64,000 bases of DNA from Halorussus vallis. Its GTDB lineage: Archaea; Halobacteriota; Halobacteria; Halobacteriales; Haladaptataceae. Location: the NCBI RefSeq assembly GCF_024138165.1, contig NZ_CP100000.1, positions 3,038,001 through 3,102,000 of the forward strand, in the 5' to 3' direction. Below the pieces are notes generated by a model that was not told the DNA's origin, made no database searches, and saw only the letters and a list, made by a program, of their open reading frames with translations. A program made the position numbers and the translations under genes. Positions 6,942 to 33,043 of this stretch are shown in pieces (the first letter of the stretch is position 1; each line of letters starts with the position of its first letter).

Positions 6942-8756
6942 ATGGCAGAAGACAGTATCGCCGTCGTGGACCTCGAGCGGTGCCAGCCCGAGCGCTGCAG
7001 CTACGAGTGCAAGAACTACTGCCCGCCCAACCGGACGGGCAAGGAGTGCATCACGCTCCGGGGCGAGGACGCCGACGACGGCAAACCCGACCAGATACAG
7101 ATCAGCGAGGAGATCTGCCTGGGCGAAACCTGCGGCATCTGCGTCGAGAAGTGTCCGTTCGACGCCATCGAGATCATCAACCTCCCCCAGGAACTCCAGG
7201 ACGAACCGGCCCACCGCTACGGCGAGAACGCCTTCTCGCTGTACGGCCTGCCGGTCCCGCTGGAGGGCCAGGTCACCGGCATCCTCGGACCGAACGGCAT
7301 CGGGAAGACCACCGCGGTCAAGGTGCTGGCCGGCGAACTCGCGCCGAACCTCGGCCGCTACGAGGACCCGCCGGGATGGGAGGAGGTGCTCGACACTTAC
7401 CGCGGAACTGAACTCCAGGACTACCTCGCGGCGGTGAAGGACGGCGACGTGAGCGTCGCCCGCAAGCCCCAGTACGTCGACAAGATTCCCGACCAGTTCG
7501 GCGGGTCGACCGCCCAACTGCTGGAGAACACAGACGAGCGGGGCGTGCTCGACGACCTGCTCGAACGCCTCGAAATCGAGCACGTGATGGACCAGGACAT
7601 CGACAGCCTCTCGGGCGGCGAACTCCAGCGCGTGGCGCTGGTGGCGTGTCTCGCCCGCGACGCCGAGTTCTACTTCGTCGACGAGATCACGCCGTACCTC
7701 GACATCAGCCAGCGGGTCGCGGCCGCCCGCCTCATCCAGGAGATGGCCGAGGAGCACGGCAAGTCGATGCTGGTGGTCGAACACGACCTGGCCATCCTCG
7801 ACCTCGTCGCCGACAACCTCCACGTCGCGTACGGTGAACCCGGCGCGTACGGCGTCATCACGTCGCCGAAGTCGGTGCGCAACGGCATCAACGAGTACCT
7901 CGAAGGTTACCTGAACAACGAGAACATGCGCATCCGGCCCCAGGCCATCGAATTCGAGGAGCACGCCCCGCGGGAGGTCACCCGTGCCGACACCCTGGTC
8001 GAGTACCCCGACATCGCCAAGTCCTACGGCGAGGGCGAGTTCAGCCTCGAAGTCGAGGGCGGCCAGATCCGCGAGAACGAGGTGCTGGGCATCGTCGGCC
8101 CGAACGGCATCGGGAAGTCGACATTCGCGAAACTGCTCGCCGGCCGACTCGAACCCGACGAGGGGGAACTCGACTTCCGCCTCGACATCGCTTACAAGCC
8201 CCAGTACATCGAGATCGACCAGCCGATGCGGACCGACGTGTTCCTCCAGTCCATCACCGACAAGGTCGGCTCGTCGTACTGGGACACCGAGATCGCCCAA
8301 CCGCTCCAACTCGAACGCATCATGGAGCAGAACCTCACCGACCTCTCGGGCGGCGAGCGCCAGCGGGTCGCCATCGCGGCCTGCCTGTCGAAGACCGCCG
8401 ACCTCTACCTGCTCGACGAACCCTCGGCGTACCTCGACGTCGAACAGCGGGTCCGGGCGACCCGCGCCATCCGCCGGTTCGCCGAACAGCGCGACGCCAC
8501 CGTGCTGGTCATCGACCACGACATCTACATGATCGACCTGCTGGCCGACCGCCTGATGGTCTTCGACGGCGAACCCGCGGTCAGCGGTCACGCGACCAAG
8601 CCGAAGGGGATGCGCGAGGGGATGAACGACTTCCTGTCGAACCTCGACATCACCTTCCGGCGCGACGAGAACGTCGGCCGGCCCCGCATCAACAAGCCCG
8701 GCAGTCAACTCGACCGCCAGCAGAAGAAGGAAGGCGAGTACTACTACGCGCCCTGA
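6942..8756 (+). CDS. rli: ABCE1 / RLI ribosome recycling ATPase
   Basis: A 604-residue cytosolic twin-ATPase that splits post-termination ribosomes together with release factor aRF1 or Pelota. It has an N-terminal ferredoxin-like domain with two 4Fe-4S clusters (cysteines in CSYECKNYC..KEC and CLGETCGICVEKCP). NBD1 has GPNGIGKTT and signature LSGGELQRV; NBD2 has GPNGIGKST, signature LSGGERQRVAIA and Walker B DLYLLDEPSAYLD. The hinge regions and the C-terminal end (KEGEYYYA) are conserved. The ATG at 6942 gives the normal N terminus (MAEDSIAVVDL). It is preceded by the EMC6-like gene in an operon. Confidence 0.97.
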   Translation: MAEDSIAVVDLERCQPERCSYECKNYCPPNRTGKECITLRGEDADDGKPDQIQISEEICLGETCGICVEKCPFDAIEIINLPQELQDEPAHRYGENAFSLYGLPVPLEGQVTGILGPNGIGKTTAVKVLAGELAPNLGRYEDPPGWEEVLDTYRGTELQDYLAAVKDGDVSVARKPQYVDKIPDQFGGSTAQLLENTDERGVLDDLLERLEIEHVMDQDIDSLSGGELQRVALVACLARDAEFYFVDEITPYLDISQRVAAARLIQEMAEEHGKSMLVVEHDLAILDLVADNLHVAYGEPGAYGVITSPKSVRNGINEYLEGYLNNENMRIRPQAIEFEEHAPREVTRADTLVEYPDIAKSYGEGEFSLEVEGGQIRENEVLGIVGPNGIGKSTFAKLLAGRLEPDEGELDFRLDIAYKPQYIEIDQPMRTDVFLQSITDKVGSSYWDTEIAQPLQLERIMEQNLTDLSGGERQRVAIAACLSKTADLYLLDEPSAYLDVEQRVRATRAIRRFAEQRDATVLVIDHDIYMIDLLADRLMVFDGEPAVSGHATKPKGMREGMNDFLSNLDITFRRDENVGRPRINKPGSQLDRQQKKEGEYYYAP

Positions 8757-8986
8757 GCCGTCCCGTCGGCCGTAACTCGGTGAGGACTCTCACAATCTCC
8801 TCCGGGCGCGCACCCACCGTCTTCTGCGCCACCCTTCCGGTCACTTTTCTGCGTCGCGCTTCGAATACCCACGGCCGACGGGACGATTTAGGGCCTCTCT
8901 AGGCCTCGAAACCGACGTTCCTCCGGACCCCGCCGAGCGCTTAGACCGTTCATAGTAATGGAATTTCGGCGGCTACTCCGGGGTAG
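8757..8986. other. intergenic region without recognised gene
   Basis: 230 bp between ABCE1 and the surface protein gene. I see no ORF. The stretch GATTTAGGGCCTCTCTAGGCC near 8885 has short imperfect symmetry; nothing else stands out. Confidence 0.5.
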
Positions 8987-10117
8987 ATGAAACGAACACT
9001 CGTCCGACTCCACGCGCTGTTGCTCGTCGCGGTGCTGGTCGCGTCGGCGGTCGTCCCGTTCGTCGGCGCCGGCGCGCTCGCGGGCGCCGCGGCGCCCGCG
9101 AGCGCGAGCGTCTCAGCCCTCGCCCTGCGTGCGCCGAACGATGCGGAGGCCGTCGCGAGTCCGAGCAGTCCGAACGCCACGGCGACCCACCGGTTCGCCG
9201 TCCCCGTCTCGACGAACGTCTCGTTCACGGGCGTCGAACTCGCCTACGAGGCGAACGTCGGCCTCGGCGGCGTCTCGGCCGCCGACGTTCGCGTCGGCGT
9301 CGACCGGCACGGCGACGGCGACGGGTTTGGCACCGACGCCGAGTTCACCGACTCGGTGACGAACGTCGACGCGAGCGGGTCGACGCTGACCGTCGAGGCG
9401 AGCGGGAAGTACGACCTCTCGGCCGGCGACGAACTGGTCGTCGCGGTCGAAGGCGTCCGGAACCCGCCGAAAGCCGGCGACCACGCGGTCACCGTCGCGG
9501 TCGCACCCGACAAGTCGGGCGCGACCGCGACCGCCGAACTGGCGATTCGGGACCACGTCCCCCGAATCGCGATGGTCGTGACCGGTAACACGCCCGGAAC
9601 CGTCTCGGTCCAGCACTACCTGCCGGCCGACGAAACCGGCTTCCTCGTGGTGCGAAACGAGACGGGCGCCGTCCTGGGCGTCTCGGACCCCATCGAGGGT
9701 GAACCGCCCTACGAGAGCGAGTGGCACCGTGTCTCGCTCTCGCGAACCGACGCCGCCCAGAACGCCACGATTACCTTCTACGACGACGCGAACGGCGACG
9801 GCGCGTTCGACGCCGCGACGGACGAACCGTTCGTCGTGGCGGGTCGGAACGTCACGAAGACCGTGCGACTCTCGGCGGCCGGGCCAGTGACGACGACCGA
9901 GACGGCGACGGCGACTCCGACCCCGACCGCGTCGACCGACTCCGGGGCGGGCGCGACGACCGCCGCGACCGAGACGACGGCGAACGCGTCGGACGAGACG
10001 ACCCCGAGCGAGACGTCCGCGGACGCCGACGGAACCACCAGTTTCGTCCCCGGGTTCGGCGTCGGCGCGACCGCAGTTGCACTCGTCGCGGCGGCGCTGT
10101 TGGCGACACGGCGATGA
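8987..10117 (+). CDS. secreted PGF-CTERM surface protein
   Basis: A 376-residue exported protein. It has a Sec signal peptide (MKRTLVRLHALLLVAVLVASAVV, processed near Ala-35 to Ala-40), a beta-rich extracellular region of about 260 residues with N-glycosylation sequons (NATATH, NVSF, NATITF), and a Thr/Ala-rich linker (about 300-350). The C-terminal archaeosortase signal is PGFGVGATAVALVAAALLATRR. Archaeosortase A is expected to remove the tail and attach the protein to a prenyl lipid in the cell envelope. The middle resembles haloarchaeal surface beta-sandwich domains; I cannot name the ligand. The signal peptide region carries a perfect 32-bp DNA palindrome at 9073-9104. Confidence 0.85.
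   Translation: MKRTLVRLHALLLVAVLVASAVVPFVGAGALAGAAAPASASVSALALRAPNDAEAVASPSSPNATATHRFAVPVSTNVSFTGVELAYEANVGLGGVSAADVRVGVDRHGDGDGFGTDAEFTDSVTNVDASGSTLTVEASGKYDLSAGDELVVAVEGVRNPPKAGDHAVTVAVAPDKSGATATAELAIRDHVPRIAMVVTGNTPGTVSVQHYLPADETGFLVVRNETGAVLGVSDPIEGEPPYESEWHRVSLSRTDAAQNATITFYDDANGDGAFDAATDEPFVVAGRNVTKTVRLSAAGPVTTTETATATPTPTASTDSGAGATTAATETTANASDETTPSETSADADGTTSFVPGFGVGATAVALVAAALLATRR
9073..9104. repeat. perfect 32-bp palindrome inside a coding region
   Basis: GCGCTCGCGGGCGCCG followed directly by its reverse complement. It encodes the Ala/Gly-rich end of the signal peptide of the PGF-CTERM protein. Confidence 0.85.
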
Positions 10118-10221
10118 GGTCGCGCTCGGGGATTCGCCCCCGAGCGCGTGGAGTCCGGATGGCCGAGGGTCGCCGGTCCGGAACCGAACCACTTTCTTCC
10201 GAGCGGTCTTACCCGCCACCA

Positions 10222-11520
10222 GTGACATCGGACCTCCCCTCCTGGTTCGGCACCGGCCACGAGCGCCGGGCGAAGGCGTTCGCCTGCCTGGCGCTGCTCT
10301 CGCTCGCGGTGGCGTCGGTCGGCGTGCTCGCCGCGCCCTCCCATCCCCGCGTGACCGTCTCGACCGACGCCCCAGAGTCGAACACGCTCGTCGCCCTCCA
10401 GGGCTACCACCACGAGGGACGGGCCGTCGAGGTCACCCCCGACGGTGAGATCGCCTGGGAGTACGCGAAACCCGACGACGTCTTCGACGCCGAGGCGCTC
10501 GCCCCCGACCGCATCCAGTTGTCGACCGCCAACGAGATTCCCGACCGGAAGTGTCCCGCCCGCTTCCGGAACGATGGGTTCGAGAACTGCGTGCGAAACA
10601 GCCTGCGAATCGTCGACAAGTCCAGCAAGGAAACCGTCTGGGAGTACGCGTGGTACGACGTGAAACTCCACGAACACGAACTCCACGACGCCGACCACTA
10701 CACGGTAAACGGCGAAGACCGCTGGGTGATGGTCGACATGGGAAACGACCGCGTGTTCGCGGTGAACCGCCAGAAGGAGGTCGTCTGGGAGTGGAACGCC
10801 ACGGACGCCTACGAGCGTCCGGCGAAACTGGGTCCGGAGGGCGACTGGACCCACGTCAACGACGTGGACCGAATCCGGCCGGGGGTCTTCCAGATCAGCC
10901 TCCGGAACTTCGACACCGTGGCCGAACTCCGGGTCCGGAACGGGTTCGTCTCGGTTCGTCCGGTGGTCGGCCCGAACAGTTACGCCGAGCGCGGCGACGT
11001 CCTCCACGAACAGCACAACCCCGACCGACTCGCCGACGGCCACCTCCTCGTGGCCGACAGCGAGAACGACCGCGTGGTCGAACTGAACCGCTCGGGCGAC
11101 ATCGTCTGGGAGTTCGGCGGCAGCGCCACTCTCGACTGGCCCAGAGACGCGGACCGCCTGCCCAACGGCCACACGCTCGTCGCCGACTCGTACAACGACC
11201 GCGTGGTCGAGGTGAACGAGCGCGGCGAGGTCGTCTGGGCGGTCGAAACTGGCGGCCTCCCCTACGAGGCCGACCGACTCCCGGCCGAGTGGAGCGCCGA
11301 CGCCCGCGCGGAGGGCAGCAGCGACCGACCGACCGCGCCCGAAGCGAACCTCTCCGACGGCGTCGAGGAGGGGTCGGTAGTCGAAGGCTACGCCGAGTAC
11401 GCCGTCTCGATGGCGAAGTACGTCCTCCCCGTCGGTTTCGGCGAACAACTGTTCCCGCTCACGTTCGGCCTCCTCTCGCTGTTCGGTGCCGCGATAGAAG
11501 GCGTGCTATGGCGGCGGTAG
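10222..11520 (+). CDS. arylsulfotransferase (ASST)-like membrane-anchored protein
   Basis: A 432-residue protein starting at GTG 10222, the last start before an N-terminal hydrophobic helix (about 16-35). The large extracytoplasmic part has repeated blade-like motifs (GEIAWEY, KETVWEYAWY, KEVVWEWNATD, GDIVWEFGG, GEVVWAVETG) and the HEHELHDADH and HVNDVDR segments typical of the arylsulfotransferase beta-propeller family. A second hydrophobic helix closes the protein (about 410-428). Bacterial ASST transfers sulfate between phenols; in haloarchaea the substrate is unknown and catalysis is only inferred. It may follow the PGF-CTERM gene in one transcript (105-bp gap). Confidence 0.8.
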   Translation: MTSDLPSWFGTGHERRAKAFACLALLSLAVASVGVLAAPSHPRVTVSTDAPESNTLVALQGYHHEGRAVEVTPDGEIAWEYAKPDDVFDAEALAPDRIQLSTANEIPDRKCPARFRNDGFENCVRNSLRIVDKSSKETVWEYAWYDVKLHEHELHDADHYTVNGEDRWVMVDMGNDRVFAVNRQKEVVWEWNATDAYERPAKLGPEGDWTHVNDVDRIRPGVFQISLRNFDTVAELRVRNGFVSVRPVVGPNSYAERGDVLHEQHNPDRLADGHLLVADSENDRVVELNRSGDIVWEFGGSATLDWPRDADRLPNGHTLVADSYNDRVVEVNERGEVVWAVETGGLPYEADRLPAEWSADARAEGSSDRPTAPEANLSDGVEEGSVVEGYAEYAVSMAKYVLPVGFGEQLFPLTFGLLSLFGAAIEGVLWRR

Positions 11521-26661: not shown

Positions 26662-27152
26662 CACATCCGTAATTTTCCCTGGCACGCGTTTCGTGTCGTC
26701 GTTCGGCCGGAAAAGCGTTGTCGGGACCCGTCCCCGACCAACCGGACAGAGTTCCTCTCCGCGCTGCATCCCGAAATTGGGAAAATAGTACAATTCCGCA
26801 GGAGTTCTCGAACGACTCGTTCGTGTCTCGTTCTCCGATTCTGCGCTCGATCACGTCGACCCTGTCTGACACAAAAGCGGGGCCGAGCGCGTACCGTCCT
26901 CCGGAACCGCGAGCGGTCGCCGATCCCGCATTTAATATCGCAACAGTTCATTTATCACGGTAGAGTAGTCGGCCGCGAGGGAGTCGCGCCAACCGACGCC
27001 GAAGGCCTTCTTCGTGACCTCGAGCACCGGCGCGACCTGCCAGCGCTCGAACTCCGGGCCGTGGAATCGACCGCGAGCGCCGGACGCGATAGCCCCGACG
27101 GCGTTCGATGGTCCGAACGTTTTTCTCCGAAGACGGGACCAACTCGTCGCGG
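26662..27152. other. 491-bp region without intact gene
   Basis: Relatively AT-rich for this genome near 26770-26960 (for example AAAATAGTACAATT and TTTAATATCGCAAC). The only coding-like content is a gene tail on the minus strand at 26932-27060. No repeat found. Confidence 0.5.
26932..27060 (-). pseudogene. candidate gene remnant (C-terminal tail)
   Basis: On the minus strand the last 42 or so residues of an open frame read naturally (FERWQVAPVLEVTKKAFGVG then WRDSLAADYSTVINELLRY) and end in TAA. Upstream the frame becomes Arg/Gly-rich and lacks a good start before the divergent DUF6735-like gene. It could be the end of a gene truncated by rearrangement. I do not recognise the family. Confidence 0.3.
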
Positions 27153-27674
27153 ATGGCACACCGCGCACTCCTCGCCTACGAGCGCGACGACGGCACGTAC
27201 GACCTCCACCGCTCGCGCTGGGGCGGTGCCGACTTCTCGCTCGCGCGCCGCATCACGGCCGAGACGCCCTTCGCCGGCGACGCGGCGGCCGCCGTGGACC
27301 CGGAGCCCGTCGCGTCGGGCCTCTCGCTCGACGAAATCGTCGCCGAACACGTCGACTTCCTCCACCACGAAGCGTTCTTCCGCGTCGACCGCGAGTTCGC
27401 CGCGACGCCGTTCCACGTCCTGTGGTTCGGGTTCGAACTCGACGCCGAAACCGTCGAGCGGAGCGAGACGGTCGGTCACGGCGCGCTGGTCGCCGCACAC
27501 GTCCGGAATCCCGGCGGCGTCGACGACTACCTCCGGGGCTGGGTCCGCGGGACGAAAGCGGTCGTCGGCGACGCCGTCGACCGTGGGTGGCTCTCCCGGG
27601 CGGATGCAGTCGAGTACCTCGCCGAACGGGTCGCGGCGTGGGACGACGACCGGGAGGTGATACGGCCGGAGTGA
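27153..27674 (+). CDS. DUF6735-like haloarchaeal protein
   Basis: A 173-residue acidic soluble protein starting MAHRALLAYERDDGTYDLHRSRWGG, the pattern of the haloarchaeal DUF6735 family. Further conserved-looking parts are EIVAEHVDFLHHEAFFRVDREF and a C-terminal WLSRADAVEYLAERV. No catalytic motif identified; function unknown. I start at 27153, not at the upstream ATG 27108, because similarity begins there. A 38-bp hairpin follows the stop at 27693. Confidence 0.75.
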   Translation: MAHRALLAYERDDGTYDLHRSRWGGADFSLARRITAETPFAGDAAAAVDPEPVASGLSLDEIVAEHVDFLHHEAFFRVDREFAATPFHVLWFGFELDAETVERSETVGHGALVAAHVRNPGGVDDYLRGWVRGTKAVVGDAVDRGWLSRADAVEYLAERVAAWDDDREVIRPE

Positions 27675-27767: not shown

Positions 27768-28502
27768 GTGACAACCGCAGACGGCACGACGGTCGCCCTC
27801 CGCGACCCGACGCCCGAGCAGGCGCGCGAGCGGGTGGCCGCGGCCATCGACCGCGGCGACCTGATAACCGTCTTCGGCCGATGTTCGGTCGACTACGAGG
27901 GCCGGGCGTCGAGCACGCTCGGTCCCGGCGACCGCCTGGTCGTGCTCAAACCCGATGGGACGGTGCTGGTCCACACCGACGAGGGCCAACAGCCGGTGAA
28001 CTGGCAGCCGCCGGGGTCGACCCGGAGCGCCGCGGTCGCCGAGGGCGACCTCGTCGTCGAGAGCACTCGTTCCGCGCCCGAAGAGCGACTGGTGGTGTCC
28101 TTCGAGTCGGTCCGGCAGGTGTCGACCTACGACGTGAGCGACCCCGAGGACCTCGCGCTCTCGGGGACCGAGGAGGACCTCCGCCGGCGACTGCTGGACG
28201 ACCCCGACCTGGTGGAGGCGGGGTTCAAGCCGCTCGCCACCGAGCGCGAGACGCCCGCGGGCGCGGTCGACATCTACGGCCGCGACCACAACGGCGCGAC
28301 CGTCGTCGTCGAACTCAAGCGCAAGCGGGTCGGCCCGGACGCGGTCGGCCAGCTTTCGCGATACGTCGAAGCGCTGGCCCGCGACCTCCACGCCGACGCC
28401 GAGATTCGGGGCATCCTGGTCGCGCCGTCGGTCACCGACCGGGCGCGCGACCTGCTCACCGAGAAGGGACTTGAGTTCGTCGCGCTCTCGCCGCCGGAGT
28501 AG
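27768..28502 (+). CDS. nucS: endonuclease NucS/EndoMS (mismatch-specific)
   Basis: A 244-residue nuclease from GTG 27768. The N-terminal domain has GRCSVDYEGRASS (about 37-49), containing residues that bind DNA in NucS, and the NWQPPGS motif (78-84). The C-terminal RecB-like nuclease domain has catalytic Asp168 (AVDIYGRD), Glu182 and Lys184 (VVELKRKR) and the QLSRYVEAL helix. Known archaeal NucS cuts both strands at mismatches and works with PCNA. The C terminus here (FVALSPPE) shows no evident PCNA-interacting box. Neighbours include a PCNA-like clamp and mutS within 5 kb. Confidence 0.95.
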   Translation: MTTADGTTVALRDPTPEQARERVAAAIDRGDLITVFGRCSVDYEGRASSTLGPGDRLVVLKPDGTVLVHTDEGQQPVNWQPPGSTRSAAVAEGDLVVESTRSAPEERLVVSFESVRQVSTYDVSDPEDLALSGTEEDLRRRLLDDPDLVEAGFKPLATERETPAGAVDIYGRDHNGATVVVELKRKRVGPDAVGQLSRYVEALARDLHADAEIRGILVAPSVTDRARDLLTEKGLEFVALSPPE

Positions 28503-28506
28503 TCGT

Positions 28507-28743
28507 TCAGGACTGGGCGCGGCGGACGACCAGCACGAGGCCGACGGTCATCGTCAGCGCGACGACCAGGAACGTGAGGCTGAAATCCTGGGGGAACGCG
28601 GCGTCGACCTGCGAGGCTTCGATGCCGGCGGTCGGCGTCGGCGTCGACGTTTGCTGGACCGCCAGCGCCGGGGTCGCGGCCAGCGACAGCACCGCGACCG
28701 CCGCGAACAGCAACCGACGTGTGGGAGAGAGGTCAGCGGACAT
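28507..28743 (-). CDS. small secreted or membrane protein
   Basis: A 78-residue protein. An N-terminal signal-like helix (RRLLFAAVAVLSLAATPALA) is followed by a short Thr/Pro-rich stretch and a C-terminal helix (LTFLVVALTMTVGLVLVV) ending RRAQS. It is either a signal-anchored protein or one with a cleavable signal and C-terminal anchor. The TATA box at 28767-28774 lies 27 bp upstream of the ATG at 28743. It is convergent with nucS. No family recognised. Confidence 0.7.
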   Translation of the reverse strand: MSADLSPTRRLLFAAVAVLSLAATPALAVQQTSTPTPTAGIEASQVDAAFPQDFSLTFLVVALTMTVGLVLVVRRAQS

Positions 28744-28766
28744 CGTACCGGTCGTCTCCGAGGTGC

Positions 28767-28774
28767 GATAAATC
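28767..28774 (-). promoter_or_regulatory. TATA box of the small membrane protein gene at 28743
   Basis: GATTTATC on the minus strand, 27 bp before the ATG, implying a leaderless mRNA. Confidence 0.55.
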
Positions 28775-28812
28775 TCTTGCGAACGACGCCGCACGCCGGT
28801 CCCGTCTCCGGT

Positions 28813-29379
28813 TCAGAAGTTGGTCACCTTCGACTGGATTCTGCCGTCGTCGATCTCCGCCGACGACTCGTCGTCCCGGAAATACCGGGCGAGTTCGTCG
28901 GCTCGGACCTCGTCGCTCTCGTGCAGGTACGCGATCTCGGTGAGCGACAGCGTCTCGCCGCGCTCCAGTTTCGACACGAGTTGCTCGGCGGTGAGCGACT
29001 GGAACGTCAGGTCGAGTCGGACGGTCGCGGCCCGTTCCTCGCTCGCCTCGGCCACGTTGACGCCCTCCGCCAGCACAGTCTCGAAGTCGAGTCCGGTGTC
29101 GTCGACCGCCCGGTAGAGGAAGGCGACGGCCGACACGAGCGCGTCGAACGCCTCGACGCCGTCGACGCGCTCGAACCGCTTGCCGAAGACGAGTTCGCGG
29201 TCCCGCTCCGAGAGGTGTTCGACGAGCAGTTCGAAGTCGAACATCGACTCGTAGATGCGGTCGCGGATCCGCGCGCGGGCGTTTCGCTCCGACTGGACCG
29301 ACGCGAAGTCGGTTTCGCCGCGGAGGTACGTTCTGTCTGCTCGACTCAGGATGCCGCGTTCTCGGTCTTCCCCGGACAT
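28813..29379 (-). CDS. haloarchaeal conserved protein (ILSxADRxYLRG type)
   Basis: A 188-residue acidic protein. The N terminus GILSRADRTYLRGETDF followed by RNARARIRDRIYESMFDFELL is a motif shared by many haloarchaeal proteins of unknown function, some near DNA replication genes. The middle is helical, and the end has a possible wHTH-like part (LTAEQLVSKLERGETLSLTEIAYL). It is divergent from the PCNA-like gene over an AT-rich 120-bp region with inverted repeats, so a regulatory link between the two is plausible but unproven. Confidence 0.7.
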   Translation of the reverse strand: MSGEDRERGILSRADRTYLRGETDFASVQSERNARARIRDRIYESMFDFELLVEHLSERDRELVFGKRFERVDGVEAFDALVSAVAFLYRAVDDTGLDFETVLAEGVNVAEASEERAATVRLDLTFQSLTAEQLVSKLERGETLSLTEIAYLHESDEVRADELARYFRDDESSAEIDDGRIQSKVTNF

Positions 29380-29397
29380 AATCGGATTCTGATTATG
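29377..29397. promoter_or_regulatory. operator-like inverted repeat at the clamp/ILSxADR divergent promoter
   Basis: CATAATC-N7-GATTATG overlaps the start codon of the gene at 28813. A second pair, AATTAGAG (29403-29410) and CTCTAATT (29443-29450), flanks the TATA box TATATAA (29413-29419). The region is markedly AT-rich for this genome. Confidence 0.4.
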
Positions 29398-29499
29398 GTA
29401 CGAATTAGAGGGTTATATAGATACTCGAATTCCGATTATCTTCTCTAATTTCGACGGAACGCTTATAGGACATCTTTCCGATACGACTAGCGAGCATCC

Positions 29500-30297
29500 A
29501 TGGCCAAACTCGACTCAAACTCCGGAACCGACGACTCACCGAACTGCCCGCTCCGCACCATCGTGGACGCCGAGACGATTCAGACGACCGTCGAACTCGC
29601 CCACGCGCTGTTCGAGGAGTGTCACGTTCGCTTCGACGAGGGCGGACTCCGACTGTCGGCCATGGACGCCGCGACGGTGGCGTCGGTCGAAATCGCGCTC
29701 GACGCCGCCGCGTTCGACTCGTTCGAAGCCGTCGACGGGCACGTCGGCGTGAACCTCTCGCGACTCCGCGACGTCGTGCGGATGGCCGACCGGGGACGCC
29801 CCGTCCGGTTCGCCCTGGACGCAGAGACGCGAACGCTCGACGTCCGCATGGACGAACTCGAATACACGCTCGGGGTGCTGGACCCCGAAACTATCCGGTC
29901 GCCGCCAGACCGCCCCGACGGGGGCTTCGAGTTCACCGGCGAGGTGCGCGTGGCCGCCGGCGACTTCGAACGCGCGGTGAAGGCGGCCGACATGGTGTCG
30001 GGCCACCTCGCGCTCGGCATCGACGCCGACGAGGAGGTGTTCTACGTCGAGGCCGAAGGTGACACCGACGACGTCTCGCTCGCGCTGTCGGCCGACGAAC
30101 TCCTCGAATTCGCGCCGGGACCGGCCCACTCGCTGTACTCGCTCGACTACCTGGCGGCCATCAACCGGGCGATGCCCCGGGACGGCGAGCTAGACCTCCG
30201 ACTCGGCACCGAACAGCCGGTCGAAGTCGGCTACGAATTCGCCGACGGCGCGGGTTCGGCGGAGTACCTGGTCGCGCCCCGCATCGCGAGAAGCTGA
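29500..30297 (+). CDS. PCNA-like DNA sliding clamp, divergent form
   Basis: A 265-residue protein with the PCNA fold. Clamp motifs seen are RFDEGGLRLSAMDAATVASVEIAL, HVGVNLSRLRDVVRMADRG, MDELEYTLGVLDPETIR, KAADMVSGHLALGIDADEE, VFYVEAEGDTDDV and YLVAPRIARS. Compared with the usual haloarchaeal PCNA (about 247 residues, starting MFKAIVSA) it has an N-terminal extension of about 15 hydrophilic residues and changed residues in the first strands and the interdomain loop. It may be a second clamp with specialised partners, or the genome's main clamp in diverged form; the other clamp is not in view. It lies between nucS and mutS. Confidence 0.85.
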   Translation: MAKLDSNSGTDDSPNCPLRTIVDAETIQTTVELAHALFEECHVRFDEGGLRLSAMDAATVASVEIALDAAAFDSFEAVDGHVGVNLSRLRDVVRMADRGRPVRFALDAETRTLDVRMDELEYTLGVLDPETIRSPPDRPDGGFEFTGEVRVAAGDFERAVKAADMVSGHLALGIDADEEVFYVEAEGDTDDVSLALSADELLEFAPGPAHSLYSLDYLAAINRAMPRDGELDLRLGTEQPVEVGYEFADGAGSAEYLVAPRIARS

Positions 30298-30370
30298 GCG
30301 TCGCGGCCGTTTCGAGAGGACCGCGACCGACCCGCCGGCTACGAAGTCGAGTGACCCGACTGTCGTCGGG

Positions 30371-33043
30371 TCACTCGACTTCGCGCTTGAGCTCGGCGAG
30401 TTCGTTCATCGCCTCCAGCGGCGTCATCGTCGCCACGTCCACCTCACGGAGGCGGTCGGCGAGCGCCGACGCCGCGGCGTCGGCGCTCGCCCGGGGCGTG
30501 GAGCCGGACGACGGTTCCTCGCCGTCACTCGGTCCCTCACCGTCGGCCGTCAGTCGCGGGGCCGAGTCGGCCTCGGCGCTCGCGCCGGCGGCGTCGGCGG
30601 CGTTCTCGGCCGCCTCGTCGTCGCGTTCCGCGCGCTCGGCGGCCAGCAGTTCCTTCGAGCGCTCTACCACCTCGTCGGGGACGCCCGCCTCCCGGGCGAC
30701 CTGGACGCCGTAGGAGGCGGTGGCCGCGCCGGGGCGCACGTCGTGGTCGAAGACGACCTCCTCGTCGGTCTGGTCGGCCGCGAAGTGGAGGTTGAACGCA
30801 CGCGGCAGGTCGGCGGCCGTCTCGGTGAGTTCGTGGTGGTGGGTCGCGAACAGCGTCATGGCGCCGATCTCGTCGTGGACGTGTTCGGTGACGGCCCGCG
30901 CGATGGCCAACCCGTCGGTGGTGCTGGTGCCCCGACCCACCTCGTCGAGCAAGACCAGCGAGTCCTCGGTGGCGCTCCGGAGGATGGAAGCCAGTTCGGT
31001 CATCTCGACCATGAACGTCGAGCGCCCGCCGGCGATGTCGTCGCTCGCGCCCACCCGGGTGAACACCCGGTCGACCGGGGTGACGCTCGCGCTGGCCGCC
31101 GGGACGAAGCTCCCGGTCTGGGCGAGCACGGTTATCAGGGCGACCTGGCGCATGTACGTCGACTTGCCCGACATGTTCGGGCCGGTGATGACCGCGAAGC
31201 GGTCGTCGGAACCGAGCGTGACGTCGTTGGGGACGAACGACTCCTCGGTGCGCTCGACCACGGGGTGGCGGCCGCGCTCGACGCTGATGCCCTCGCCGCC
31301 GATGTCGGGGCGACCGTAATCGTGCTTGGCCGCCACCTCGCCGAGCGCGGCGAGGACGTCGAGTTCCGCCAGCGCGTCGGCCAGCGCCTGGACGCGCTCG
31401 GACTCGGCGGCGACCGTCGAGCGAACCTCCCGGAACAGTTCGTGTTCGAGGTCGTCGGCCCGATTCTCGGCCCGGAGAATCTCGTCCTCGCGCTCCTTGA
31501 GTTCGGGCGTGTAGAACCGCTCGGAGTTCTTGAGCGTCTGGCGGCGCTCGTAGTCGTCCGGCACCGAGTCGAGGTTCGGGTTCGTCACCTCGATGTAGTA
31601 GCCGTGGACCGCGTTGTGGCCGACCTTCAGCGAGCCGACGCCAGTGCGCTCGCGCTCTTTGGCCTGGAGGTCGTCGATCCACGCCTTCCCCTCGCGCTCG
31701 GTCGCCCGGAGCGCGTCGAGTTCGTCGTCGTAGCCTTCGGCGATGACACCGCCCTCGGTTATCTCGCGGTCGGGGTTCTCCTGGATAGCGCGGTCGATCA
31801 GGTCCCGGACGTCGGCGAGTTCGTCCAGGCCGTCCCGGAGCGCCGACAGTTTCTCGGAGTCGAGGTCGGCCATCGCGGCCTTGAGTTCGGGCACCACGTC
31901 GAGGGTGTCTTTGAGCGACCGCAGGTCGCGGGCGTTGGCCCGGCCGCGCGAGATGCGGGCGATGAGTCGCTCGATGTCGTAGACGTCTCGCAGGAGCGTC
32001 CGGGCCTCCTCGCGGGCCCGGACGCTCTCGGTCCACTCCTCGACGGCGTCGAGGCGGGCCTCGATGCGGGCCTCGTCCAGCAGGGGTCGCCGGAGCCAGT
32101 CCTTGAGCTTCCGACTCCCGAGCGCGCAGGACGTCTCGTCGAGCACGCCCAGCAGGGTCGCGTCGGGGTCGCCGCGGACGCCCCGGCGCTCGAACAGTTC
32201 GAGGCTGTCGAGCGCCACCGCGTCCAGCAGCATGTACTCGCGGGGTTCGTAGCGGGTGAGGTGGTTGAGGTAGTCGAGTTCGTCGTCCTTGCCGCCGCGG
32301 GTGTACTCGGCGTACGCCAGCAGGGCGCCGCAGGCCCGAATCTCGCAATCCTCCGCGAGCAGGCTCTCGGGCGGCCCGAAGTACGACTCGACGCGCTCGC
32401 GGGCCGACTCGGCCTCGAACGCGCCCGGGTCGTAGGGCGAAACCATGCAGTCGGCCGCGAAGAAGTCGGTCGAGACGCCCGGTTCGACGACGGCCTCTGC
32501 GGGCGCGAACCGACTGATCTCGTCCTCGACGGCGTCCTCGCGCCGGGCGCTGGTTGCGTAGAAATCGCCGGTCGAGACGTCCAGGAGCGCGAGGCCGTAG
32601 CGTTCGCCCGAGGTGAGACACGCCACGAAGTTGTTGTCGTCGGTGTCGAGCAGTTCGTCCTCGGTGAGCGTGCCGGGCGTGACGATGCGCGTCACGGCGC
32701 GTTCGACCACGCCGGTCGCCTCCTCGGGGTCCTGGACCTGGTCGGCGACCGCGACCCGGTAGCCGGCGTCCAGTAGCGTCTCGATGTACGACTCGGCGTT
32801 GTCGACGGGGATGCCCGCCATCGGGTAGGTGCCGGTCGAGTCCTCGCGCTTGGTCAGCGTGATTTCGAGCAGGCGGGCGGTGGCCTCGGCCGCCTCGCAG
32901 AAGGTTTCGTAGAAGTCCCCCACCTGGAAGAGGACGAGCGAGTCGTCGTACCGCGAGCAGAGGTCGAAGTACTGACTCAGCATCGGCGTCAGTTCGTCGT
33001 CGCTCTCGGCCATCTTCTCGGGTGGCCCCAGCGCCGCGTCCAT
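30371..33043 (-). CDS. mutS: DNA mismatch repair protein MutS
   Basis: An 890-residue MutS1. The mismatch-reading domain has the GDFYETF motif (42-48; Phe44 and Glu46 contact the mispair). Connector, lever and clamp domains follow, then the ABC-type ATPase with Walker [14 protein letters not shown], signature region [14 protein letters not shown], Walker [17 protein letters not shown] and ATHHHELT. A haloarchaeal acidic, Ala-rich insertion of about 70 residues precedes the C-terminal helix. mutL is not adjacent, unlike the common mutS-mutL operon. It is convergent with the clamp gene. Confidence 0.97.

What the first reader, a model, noticed from the sequence alone, without database searches (positions are those of the whole stretch)
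27768..33043. Repair neighbourhood: NucS, a divergent PCNA-like clamp and MutS within 5.3 kb
Seen: nucS, a PCNA-family clamp with unusual sequence, a conserved ILSxADR protein divergent from that clamp, and mutS without mutL. Known: archaeal NucS/EndoMS is mismatch-specific and works with PCNA, while MutS is the canonical mismatch reader; the two systems are usually considered alternatives. Inference: the diverged clamp may serve one or both mismatch pathways, and the ILSxADR protein may be a partner or regulator.
Basis: partly seen in the sequence, partly recalled or inferred. Interest (0 to 1): 0.62.

Follow-up and report, generated by a model that had tools for sequence, protein, structure and literature searches.

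The report
Second sliding clamp with dedicated partner
About one in nine of the salt-loving archaea sampled carries an extra, fast-evolving copy of the DNA sliding clamp that always sits back to back with one uncharacterised protein ending in a clamp-docking tag, so the two genes look like a portable working unit rather than part of the mismatch-repair genes beside them here.

Summary
The genes are as described: nucS, a divergent PCNA ("clamp2"), a divergently transcribed ILSxADR protein ("ILS") and mutS1b. Canonical PCNA, a second mutS, mutL and a second nucS lie elsewhere in the genome. The mismatch-repair reading does not hold. The nucS–mutS1b convergent neighbourhood is old: 27/28 genomes of the family have it, with or without the clamp. 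ILS–clamp2 sits between them in only 6 of 43 genomes. The real unit is the ILS–clamp2 pair. ILS orthologues occur in 43 of 392 Halobacteriales genomes, 24 genera and 19 gene contexts, and all 43 abut a PCNA paralogue, always divergently. ILS and clamp2 trees are congruent. No third gene is shared. Every ILS carries Q-[SA]-x-[VM]-T-x-[FY], 41/43 exactly at the C-terminus: a PIP-box-like tail that is absent from 27 paralogue sequences without a clamp. The ILS promoter has two 19-bp palindromes flanking its TATA box, conserved in place; exact matches in the 5-Mb genome are these two plus one other site. Best reading: a portable alternative clamp with a PIP-tailed, probably DNA-binding, self-regulating partner. 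Its process is unknown. DNA binding and clamp binding are inferred, not shown.

The parts
28813..29379 (-). ILS protein, 188 aa: mostly helical, invariant arginine-rich stretch R32-R41, disordered C-terminal tail
   Evidence: ORF; 43 orthologues 50-82% identical; AlphaFold model pLDDT 80, tail 170-188 below 50; no Pfam/NCBIfam/PADLOC/PHROGs family
28816..28836 (-). codons of the C-terminal PIP-like tail QSKVTNF-COOH (residues 182-188)
   Evidence: Q[SA]x[VM]Tx[FY] in 43/43 orthologues, exactly terminal in 41; absent from 27 paralogue sequences
29378..29396 (.). operator-like palindrome B, overlapping the ILS start codon
   Evidence: same pattern at -17 in 42/42 loci; exact match here, genome-wide exact pattern only here, at site A and at one other place
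29413..29419 (-). probable TATA box of ILS, between palindromes A and B
   Evidence: sequence; position relative to the start codon; inferred
29421..29439 (.). operator-like palindrome A, 43 bp from B
   Evidence: at -59/-60 in 39/42 loci; two or more sites in 0.1% of shuffled upstream regions
29462..29469 (+). probable TATA box of clamp2 (CTTATAGG), 30 bp before its start codon
   Evidence: sequence; conserved ATAAG block in the intergenic alignment; inferred
29500..30297 (+). clamp2, second PCNA (265 aa) with altered interdomain-connecting loop
   Evidence: AlphaFold pLDDT 91.5, best PDB match H. volcanii PCNA 3ifv, TM 0.97 by target length
27768..28502 (+). nucS/endoMS (neighbour, not part of the pair); ends before the PIP tail region of P. 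abyssi NucS
30371..33043 (-). mutS1b (neighbour, not part of the pair), convergent with nucS
28507..28794 (-). small putative secreted/membrane ORF, 95 aa (not part of the pair)
   Evidence: hydrophobic segments by eye; not found by sequence match in the five other loci of the same genus

Best explanation
ILS and clamp2 form one portable two-gene module: an alternative sliding clamp with a dedicated partner. SHOWN by sequence: the pair is always linked and divergent, is co-inherited, moves between genomic sites, and is independent of nucS/mutS. INFERRED: clamp2 folds and most likely assembles as a ring; its PIP-docking surface has been re-tuned (canonical IDCL residues I122, P123 and L127 largely lost; IRSPPD typical instead). 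The flexible C-terminus of ILS (QSKVTxF-COOH) docks in that pocket, while the arginine-rich helical body of ILS binds DNA. ILS controls its own gene by binding the twin palindromes that flank its TATA box and cover its start codon, so ILS supply is limited and possibly tied to how much clamp is free to bind its tail. The module would thus tether a DNA-binding protein to a loaded clamp, or the reverse, in a replication- or repair-linked process not yet identified. It is not a dedicated part of NucS or MutS repair.
For: 43/43 ILS orthologues in 24 genera abut a PCNA paralogue, all divergent once the G272 clamp is correctly placed. Within the family the 10 genomes with clamp2 are the 10 with ILS, and an eleventh (G003) has fragments of both. 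No other neighbour family is shared widely; 19 separate contexts. Trees congruent: distance correlation 0.67, 0 of 2000 permutations. Some cross-family groupings are shared by both trees (L112+L114; L126 within the L117/L119/L120/L123 group). PIP-like tail 43/43 against 0/27 paralogue sequences; it resembles human Cdt1 QRRVTDFF, a solved PCNA ligand (PMC7225939). Twin palindromes at fixed places in 39-42 of 42 loci, exact matches near-unique in the genome. Paralogues without a clamp carry a palindrome over their own start codon in 15/23 cases against 6/355 control genes. Invariant R32, R35, R37, R39, R41. All 33 genomes checked outside the family also keep a canonical PCNA.
Against: No binding or expression data exist. 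NucS2 of the same genome also ends in a PIP-like tail (EAKLTDF) and occurs in a genome without clamp2, so the ILS tail might dock on canonical PCNA instead. The ILS fold has no confident structural match, so DNA binding rests on arginines and operators only. The palindromes could be bound by another regulator. Ring formation by clamp2, alone or with PCNA, was not tested.
Confidence: 0.6

Rival explanations
1. Mismatch-repair neighbourhood: clamp2 is the processivity or orientation factor of NucS and/or MutS1b, and ILS is its regulator.
For: Six genomes of the window's genus have the four genes together; archaeal NucS is known to work with PCNA (PMC7776575).
Against: 37 of 43 pairs lie elsewhere; nucS-mutS1b adjacency is conserved without the pair and shows no remnants of it. 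The window's NucS lacks the tail region that carries the PIP in P. abyssi NucS.
Confidence: 0.07
2. ILS is primarily a repressor that docks on canonical PCNA (sensing replication), and clamp2 is a regulated spare clamp that does not itself bind ILS.
For: The ILS tail resembles general PIP boxes and the NucS2 tail; palindromes lie on the ILS side of the intergenic region.
Against: The tail is invariant only in clamp2-linked ILS and absent from paralogues that live with canonical PCNA only; ILS and clamp2 are co-inherited.
Confidence: 0.17
3. Domesticated mobile-element or viral replication module: clamp2 descends from a halovirus/plasmid PCNA and ILS is an associated regulator, with no cellular role or a role against other elements.
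For: Haloviruses and plasmids carry PCNAs; the pair is patchy and portable; one copy is on a plasmid; clamp2 evolves fast.
Against: No ILS hit in phage records; clamp2 does not join the sampled viral PCNAs in the tree; no integrase or other mobility gene is shared; no PADLOC hit for ILS or clamp2.
Confidence: 0.13
4. Clamp2 forms mixed rings with canonical PCNA (as Sulfolobus PCNA1/2/3), giving a ring with one ILS-specific seat.
For: Canonical PCNA is present in every genome checked that has clamp2; heterotrimers are known in archaea (PMC4929162).
Against: Clamp2 diverges fast while canonical PCNA is conserved; interface not analysed here.
Confidence: 0.1

Closest known systems
Canonical haloarchaeal PCNA (Haloferax volcanii PcnA, PDB 3IFV/3HI8)
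   Same: Same fold (rmsd 1.3 A, 45% identity) and full-length alignment
   Different: Paralogue kept beside canonical PCNA; IDCL and surroundings changed (N43, G45, E119, I122, P123, L127 largely lost; A45 and P119 gained in 86%); always paired with ILS
Extra haloarchaeal PCNAs of Lynch et al. 2012 (PMC3404096)
   Same: Second PCNA genes in haloarchaea, of complex origin
   Different: The passages read report no partner gene, tail or operator; whether any of those four clamps belongs to this pair was not checked
Thermococcus kodakarensis PCNA2 and the PCNA inhibitor TIP
   Same: A second clamp in a euryarchaeon, and a lineage-specific PCNA-binding protein with a possible PIP
   Different: TIP is a 64-aa protein with a proposed N-terminal PIP, confined to Thermococcales (PMC4929162); ILS is 188 aa, C-terminal tail, clamp-linked
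Phage T4 gp45 clamp with gp33/gp55
   Same: Transcription proteins that reach a sliding clamp through a flexible clamp-binding motif (PMC7892883)
   Different: gp55 is sigma-like; ILS shows no such homology and no effect on transcription has been shown; analogy only
Human Cdt1 PIP degron (QRRVTDFF)
   Same: Q-x-K/R-V-T-D/E/N-F pattern
   Different: Second aromatic missing in ILS, which ends at the first; no relationship of the proteins

Membership tests
PCNA sliding clamp (clamp2) | Two-domain PCNA fold | tested here: met
   AlphaFold pLDDT 91.5; 3ifv TM 0.97 by target length, E 1.5e-29
PCNA sliding clamp (clamp2) | Profile scores over curated cut-offs | tested here: met
   PF00705 26.2 (cut-off 20.3) and NF002222 238 (cut-off 207) met; PF02747 20.7 (cut-off 23) missed. 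Distant members L129 and L132 miss the NF002222 cut-off
PCNA sliding clamp (clamp2) | Closed trimeric ring loaded on DNA by RFC | not testable with these tools
   -
Canonical haloarchaeal PCNA orthologue | Groups with canonical PCNA and keeps its invariant IDCL residues | tested here: not met
   38 of 42 clamp2 group apart from canonical PCNA, and one clade of all 42 is not rejected (p-AU 0.505); IDCL residues lost
Viral/plasmid PCNA | Groups with sampled halovirus or plasmid clamps | tested here: inconclusive
   None of 8 mobile PCNAs falls inside the main clamp2 group; three clamp2 (L112, L114, L127) branch near canonical and mobile clamps; long branches
PIP-box protein (ILS) | QxxhxxaX-type motif at an exposed terminus | tested here: met
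   43/43 Q[SA]x[VM]Tx[FY], 41 exactly terminal; region disordered in the model. Only one aromatic, and V rather than L/I/M at the hydrophobic place (definition PMC4929162)
PIP-box protein (ILS) | Binds a clamp | not testable with these tools
   -
Autoregulatory DNA-binding protein (ILS) | Conserved operator in its own promoter | tested here: met
   42/42 site B and 39/42 site A; paralogues 15/23 against controls 6/355
Autoregulatory DNA-binding protein (ILS) | Known DNA-binding domain | tested here: inconclusive
   No Pfam/NCBIfam match; no confident fold match
Mismatch-repair accessory | Conserved linkage with nucS or mutS | tested here: not met
   6 of 43 loci, one genus
NucS/EndoMS (window nucS) | NucS N and C domains over cut-off | tested here: met
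NucS/EndoMS (window nucS) | C-terminal PIP tail as in P. abyssi NucS | tested here: not met
   Ends at the residue aligned to P. abyssi 234; PIP lies in 234-251
Anti-phage defence system | PADLOC model match | tested here: not met
   None for ILS or clamp2

The most novel reading that the evidence does not exclude
ILS is a clamp-coupled transcription regulator: a sequence-specific DNA-binding protein whose C-terminal tag lets a loaded sliding clamp (clamp2, or PCNA) switch the promoter it sits on, so transcription reads out replication or repair in an archaeon, an independent counterpart of T4 gp45-gp33/gp55 late transcription with its own dedicated clamp.
Probability: 0.15. Interest if true: 0.88.

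Novelty: new variant of a known kind. Interest (0 to 1): 0.6.

Why it matters
Second PCNAs in haloarchaea have been noted since 2012 without any idea of what they do. A strictly linked partner with a PIP-like tail and its own operator turns 'redundant clamp?' into a testable two-protein system, and defines a new Halobacteriales protein family (ILS) whose members appear to regulate themselves. If ILS and clamp2 bind each other selectively, this would be a natural example of a clamp splitting off with its own client, and possibly of clamp-coupled gene control in archaea.

Tried and rejected
Chance neighbourhood of all four genes: rejected for nucS–mutS1b and for ILS–clamp2 separately, accepted for the link between the two pairs. 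Mobile element: no flanking repeats specific to the insert, no shared mobility gene, no ILS in phage records. Defence system: no PADLOC match. A third conserved component: none; recurrent clusters beyond the pair are either frame-shadow ORFs of the pair or local context. Known family for ILS: Pfam over all 43 members gave only scattered hits with E 0.018 or weaker; PDB and BFVD fold searches gave nothing with E below 0.6, which does not show that the fold is new. A first palindrome scorer was faulty and was replaced. In one search the clamp picked in L107 was the canonical PCNA and the ILS start of L102 is doubtful; the first was corrected, the second left out of operator counts. L108's clamp is frame-shifted in a draft assembly and was left out of the clamp trees. 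The genome-contig scan returned one locus only, a canonical PCNA. The third exact operator match (C1:601573) lies between a transporter-like gene and an acylase-like gene (judged by eye) and looks incidental. ILS was sought in a phylum-wide sample; every match was in the same order, but the sample is thin outside it.
Full report
WHAT IS THERE. The genome (5.05 Mb) has a canonical PCNA about 1 Mb away, 45% identical to the window's clamp, a second mutS1 and a mutL close to each other, and a second NucS homologue. Relatives with identifiable records are Haladaptatus halobius (G003) and Halomicrococcus gelatinilyticus (G010), so the window comes from the Haladaptataceae; its genus is probably Halorussus (my inference).

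TWO UNRELATED NEIGHBOURHOODS. nucS and mutS1b are convergent neighbours in 27 of 28 genomes of the family, G022 being the exception. mutS was also seen within the 1.5-kb flanks of nucS in 16 of 25 loci drawn from the rest of the order. In genomes without the second clamp the two genes can be 3-40 bp apart. ILS–clamp2 lies between them only in six genomes of the window's genus. Fourteen loci from other members of the family, with intergenic gaps of 8 bp to several kb, show no trace of the pair. So the nucS–mutS1b arrangement is older and independent, and the pair is a lodger in, or was lost from, the gap.

THE REAL UNIT. Full-length ILS orthologues (50-82% identity, reaching the last residue) occur in 43 of 392 Halobacteriales genomes, cleanly separated from more distant paralogues (below 50% identity, N-terminal match). 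All 43 lie beside a PCNA paralogue in divergent orientation, mostly 100-125 bp apart. The apparent exception (G272) was resolved by finding clamp2 on the other side of ILS, with canonical PCNA as its other neighbour. The 33 genomes checked outside the family also carry canonical PCNA, 71-84% identical to that of the window's genome. In Haladaptatus halobius both genes are present only as overlapping fragments, one with a stop: decay of the pair together. The flanks fall into 19 contexts and no third gene family is shared. ILS and clamp2 trees agree (distance correlation 0.67, 0 of 2000 permutations), including groupings that cross families (L112 with L114; L126 within the L117/L119/L120/L123 group), which suggests transfer as a unit. 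A single clamp2 clade is not rejected (p-AU 0.505), although four members were placed outside the main group in the free tree.

ILS PROTEIN. ILS is predicted to be all-helical (pLDDT 80) with a disordered end. Invariant residues cluster in GILSxADRxYLRG and in the stretch Q29-R41 with R32, R35, R37, R39 and R41; such conserved arginines in an acidic halophilic protein suggest nucleic-acid contact (inference). Its last residues, [DE]DGR[IV]Q[SA]x[VM]Tx[FY] in nearly all, are the best conserved part of the C-terminal region: the core motif Q[SA]x[VM]Tx[FY] is in 43/43 and exactly terminal in 41, and in none of 27 paralogue sequences (some duplicated). This fits the PIP definition QxxhxxaX loosely (one aromatic, V/M; PMC4929162) and is very close to human Cdt1 QRRVTDFF (PMC7225939). 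No library names the family and no fold match was found.

CLAMP2 PROTEIN. The model is a normal PCNA subunit (pLDDT 91.5; best match H. volcanii PCNA, 45% identity). Against 51 canonical haloarchaeal PCNAs, 42 clamp2 sequences have lost the invariant IDCL residues (E119, I122, P123, L127) and N43/G45 in the region corresponding to the PIP pocket, while P119 and A45 are typical (86% each). This is what a changed client set would look like; it is not proof. Clamp2 is less conserved than ILS (mean column identity 46% against 66%).

OPERATORS. Two 19-bp palindromes (ATAAYC-N7-GRKTAT) lie 43 bp apart around the ILS TATA box: 29421-29439 and 29378-29396, the second covering the start codon. Allowing two mismatches, site B is at exactly -17 in 42/42 loci and site A at -59/-60 in 39/42; 39/42 upstream regions have two or more sites against 0.1% of shuffles. 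Exact matches in the whole genome: these two and one other place. ILS paralogues that have no clamp also carry a palindrome over their start codon (two subfamily-specific types), 15/23 with at least 6 of 7 arm pairs against 6/355 control genes. The simplest account is that the shared N-terminal domain binds DNA and represses its own gene. Site A is about 25 bp upstream of the clamp2 TATA box, so an effect on clamp2 is possible but not indicated.

MECHANISM, STEP BY STEP. Shown: linkage, co-inheritance, tail, operators, altered clamp surface. Inferred: tail–clamp2 docking (about 0.7); ILS binding to its operators (about 0.65); both in one protein, so that clamp occupancy and ILS regulation could be coupled (about 0.4); a replication- or repair-linked role (likely from the nature of the clamp, process unknown). 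A link to NucS or MutS repair is unlikely (0.07): the genomic linkage is not conserved, and the window's NucS ends where the PIP-containing tail of P. abyssi NucS (residues 234-251, PMC4929162) would start. The second NucS of this genome does end in a PIP-like EAKLTDF, also in a genome without clamp2, which keeps open that such tails, including that of ILS, dock on canonical PCNA.

LITERATURE. Extra PCNAs in four haloarchaea were reported in 2012 with unknown function (PMC3404096). Reviews of H. volcanii repair and archaeal PCNA partners name NucS, NreA and TIP, and I found nothing like ILS in the passages read. H. volcanii NucS and MutS1b have both been linked to gene conversion (PMC11276520). 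Only open-licence papers could be searched, so novelty is provisional.

VERDICT. The module is a new variant of a known kind (sliding clamp plus PIP client) with an uncharacterised protein family at its centre.

Noticed in passing
window 27768-28502 and 30371-33043; nucS and mutS1b are convergent neighbours in 27/28 Haladaptataceae genomes and in at least 16 of 25 loci from other families. The 'alternative' mismatch systems are old genomic neighbours, a pattern I did not find mentioned in the passages read.
   Followed up: partly
L260 356-1090 (own genome, about C1:1763755-1764490), L261: A second, 40% identical NucS paralogue ends in a PIP-like tail (TEAKLTDF), whereas the main NucS beside mutS1b has lost or never had one: possible division of labour between PCNA-bound and PCNA-free NucS.
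   Followed up: partly
L050-L068, L133-L138: Clamp-free ILS paralogues form subfamilies with their own palindrome over the start codon, either TATAATC-N7-GATTATG or CATACACA-N5-TGTGTATG. A new family of probable self-regulating DNA-binding proteins, many on plasmids.
   Followed up: partly
L107 (G272) 7357-9667: In one genome canonical PCNA lies directly downstream of ILS, with clamp2 on the other side: both clamps flank ILS.
   Followed up: no
L078 (Haladaptatus halobius) 9549-10289: ILS and clamp2 are both decayed, their fragments overlapping and ILS with an internal stop.
   Followed up: no
window 30342-30383: Perfect 19-nt inverted repeat with a 4-nt loop, spanning the 3' end of mutS1b and the gap to the clamp2 stop: possible bidirectional terminator.
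   Followed up: no
G008 C21:499903-503220: Both nucS and mutS1b are broken into pieces (stop/frame changes) in this ILS-clamp2-bearing Haladaptatus-group draft genome: possible natural loss of both mismatch factors, or assembly error.
   Followed up: no
window 27108-27674: A DUF6735 gene lies just upstream of nucS in most members of the family and several other families.
   Followed up: no
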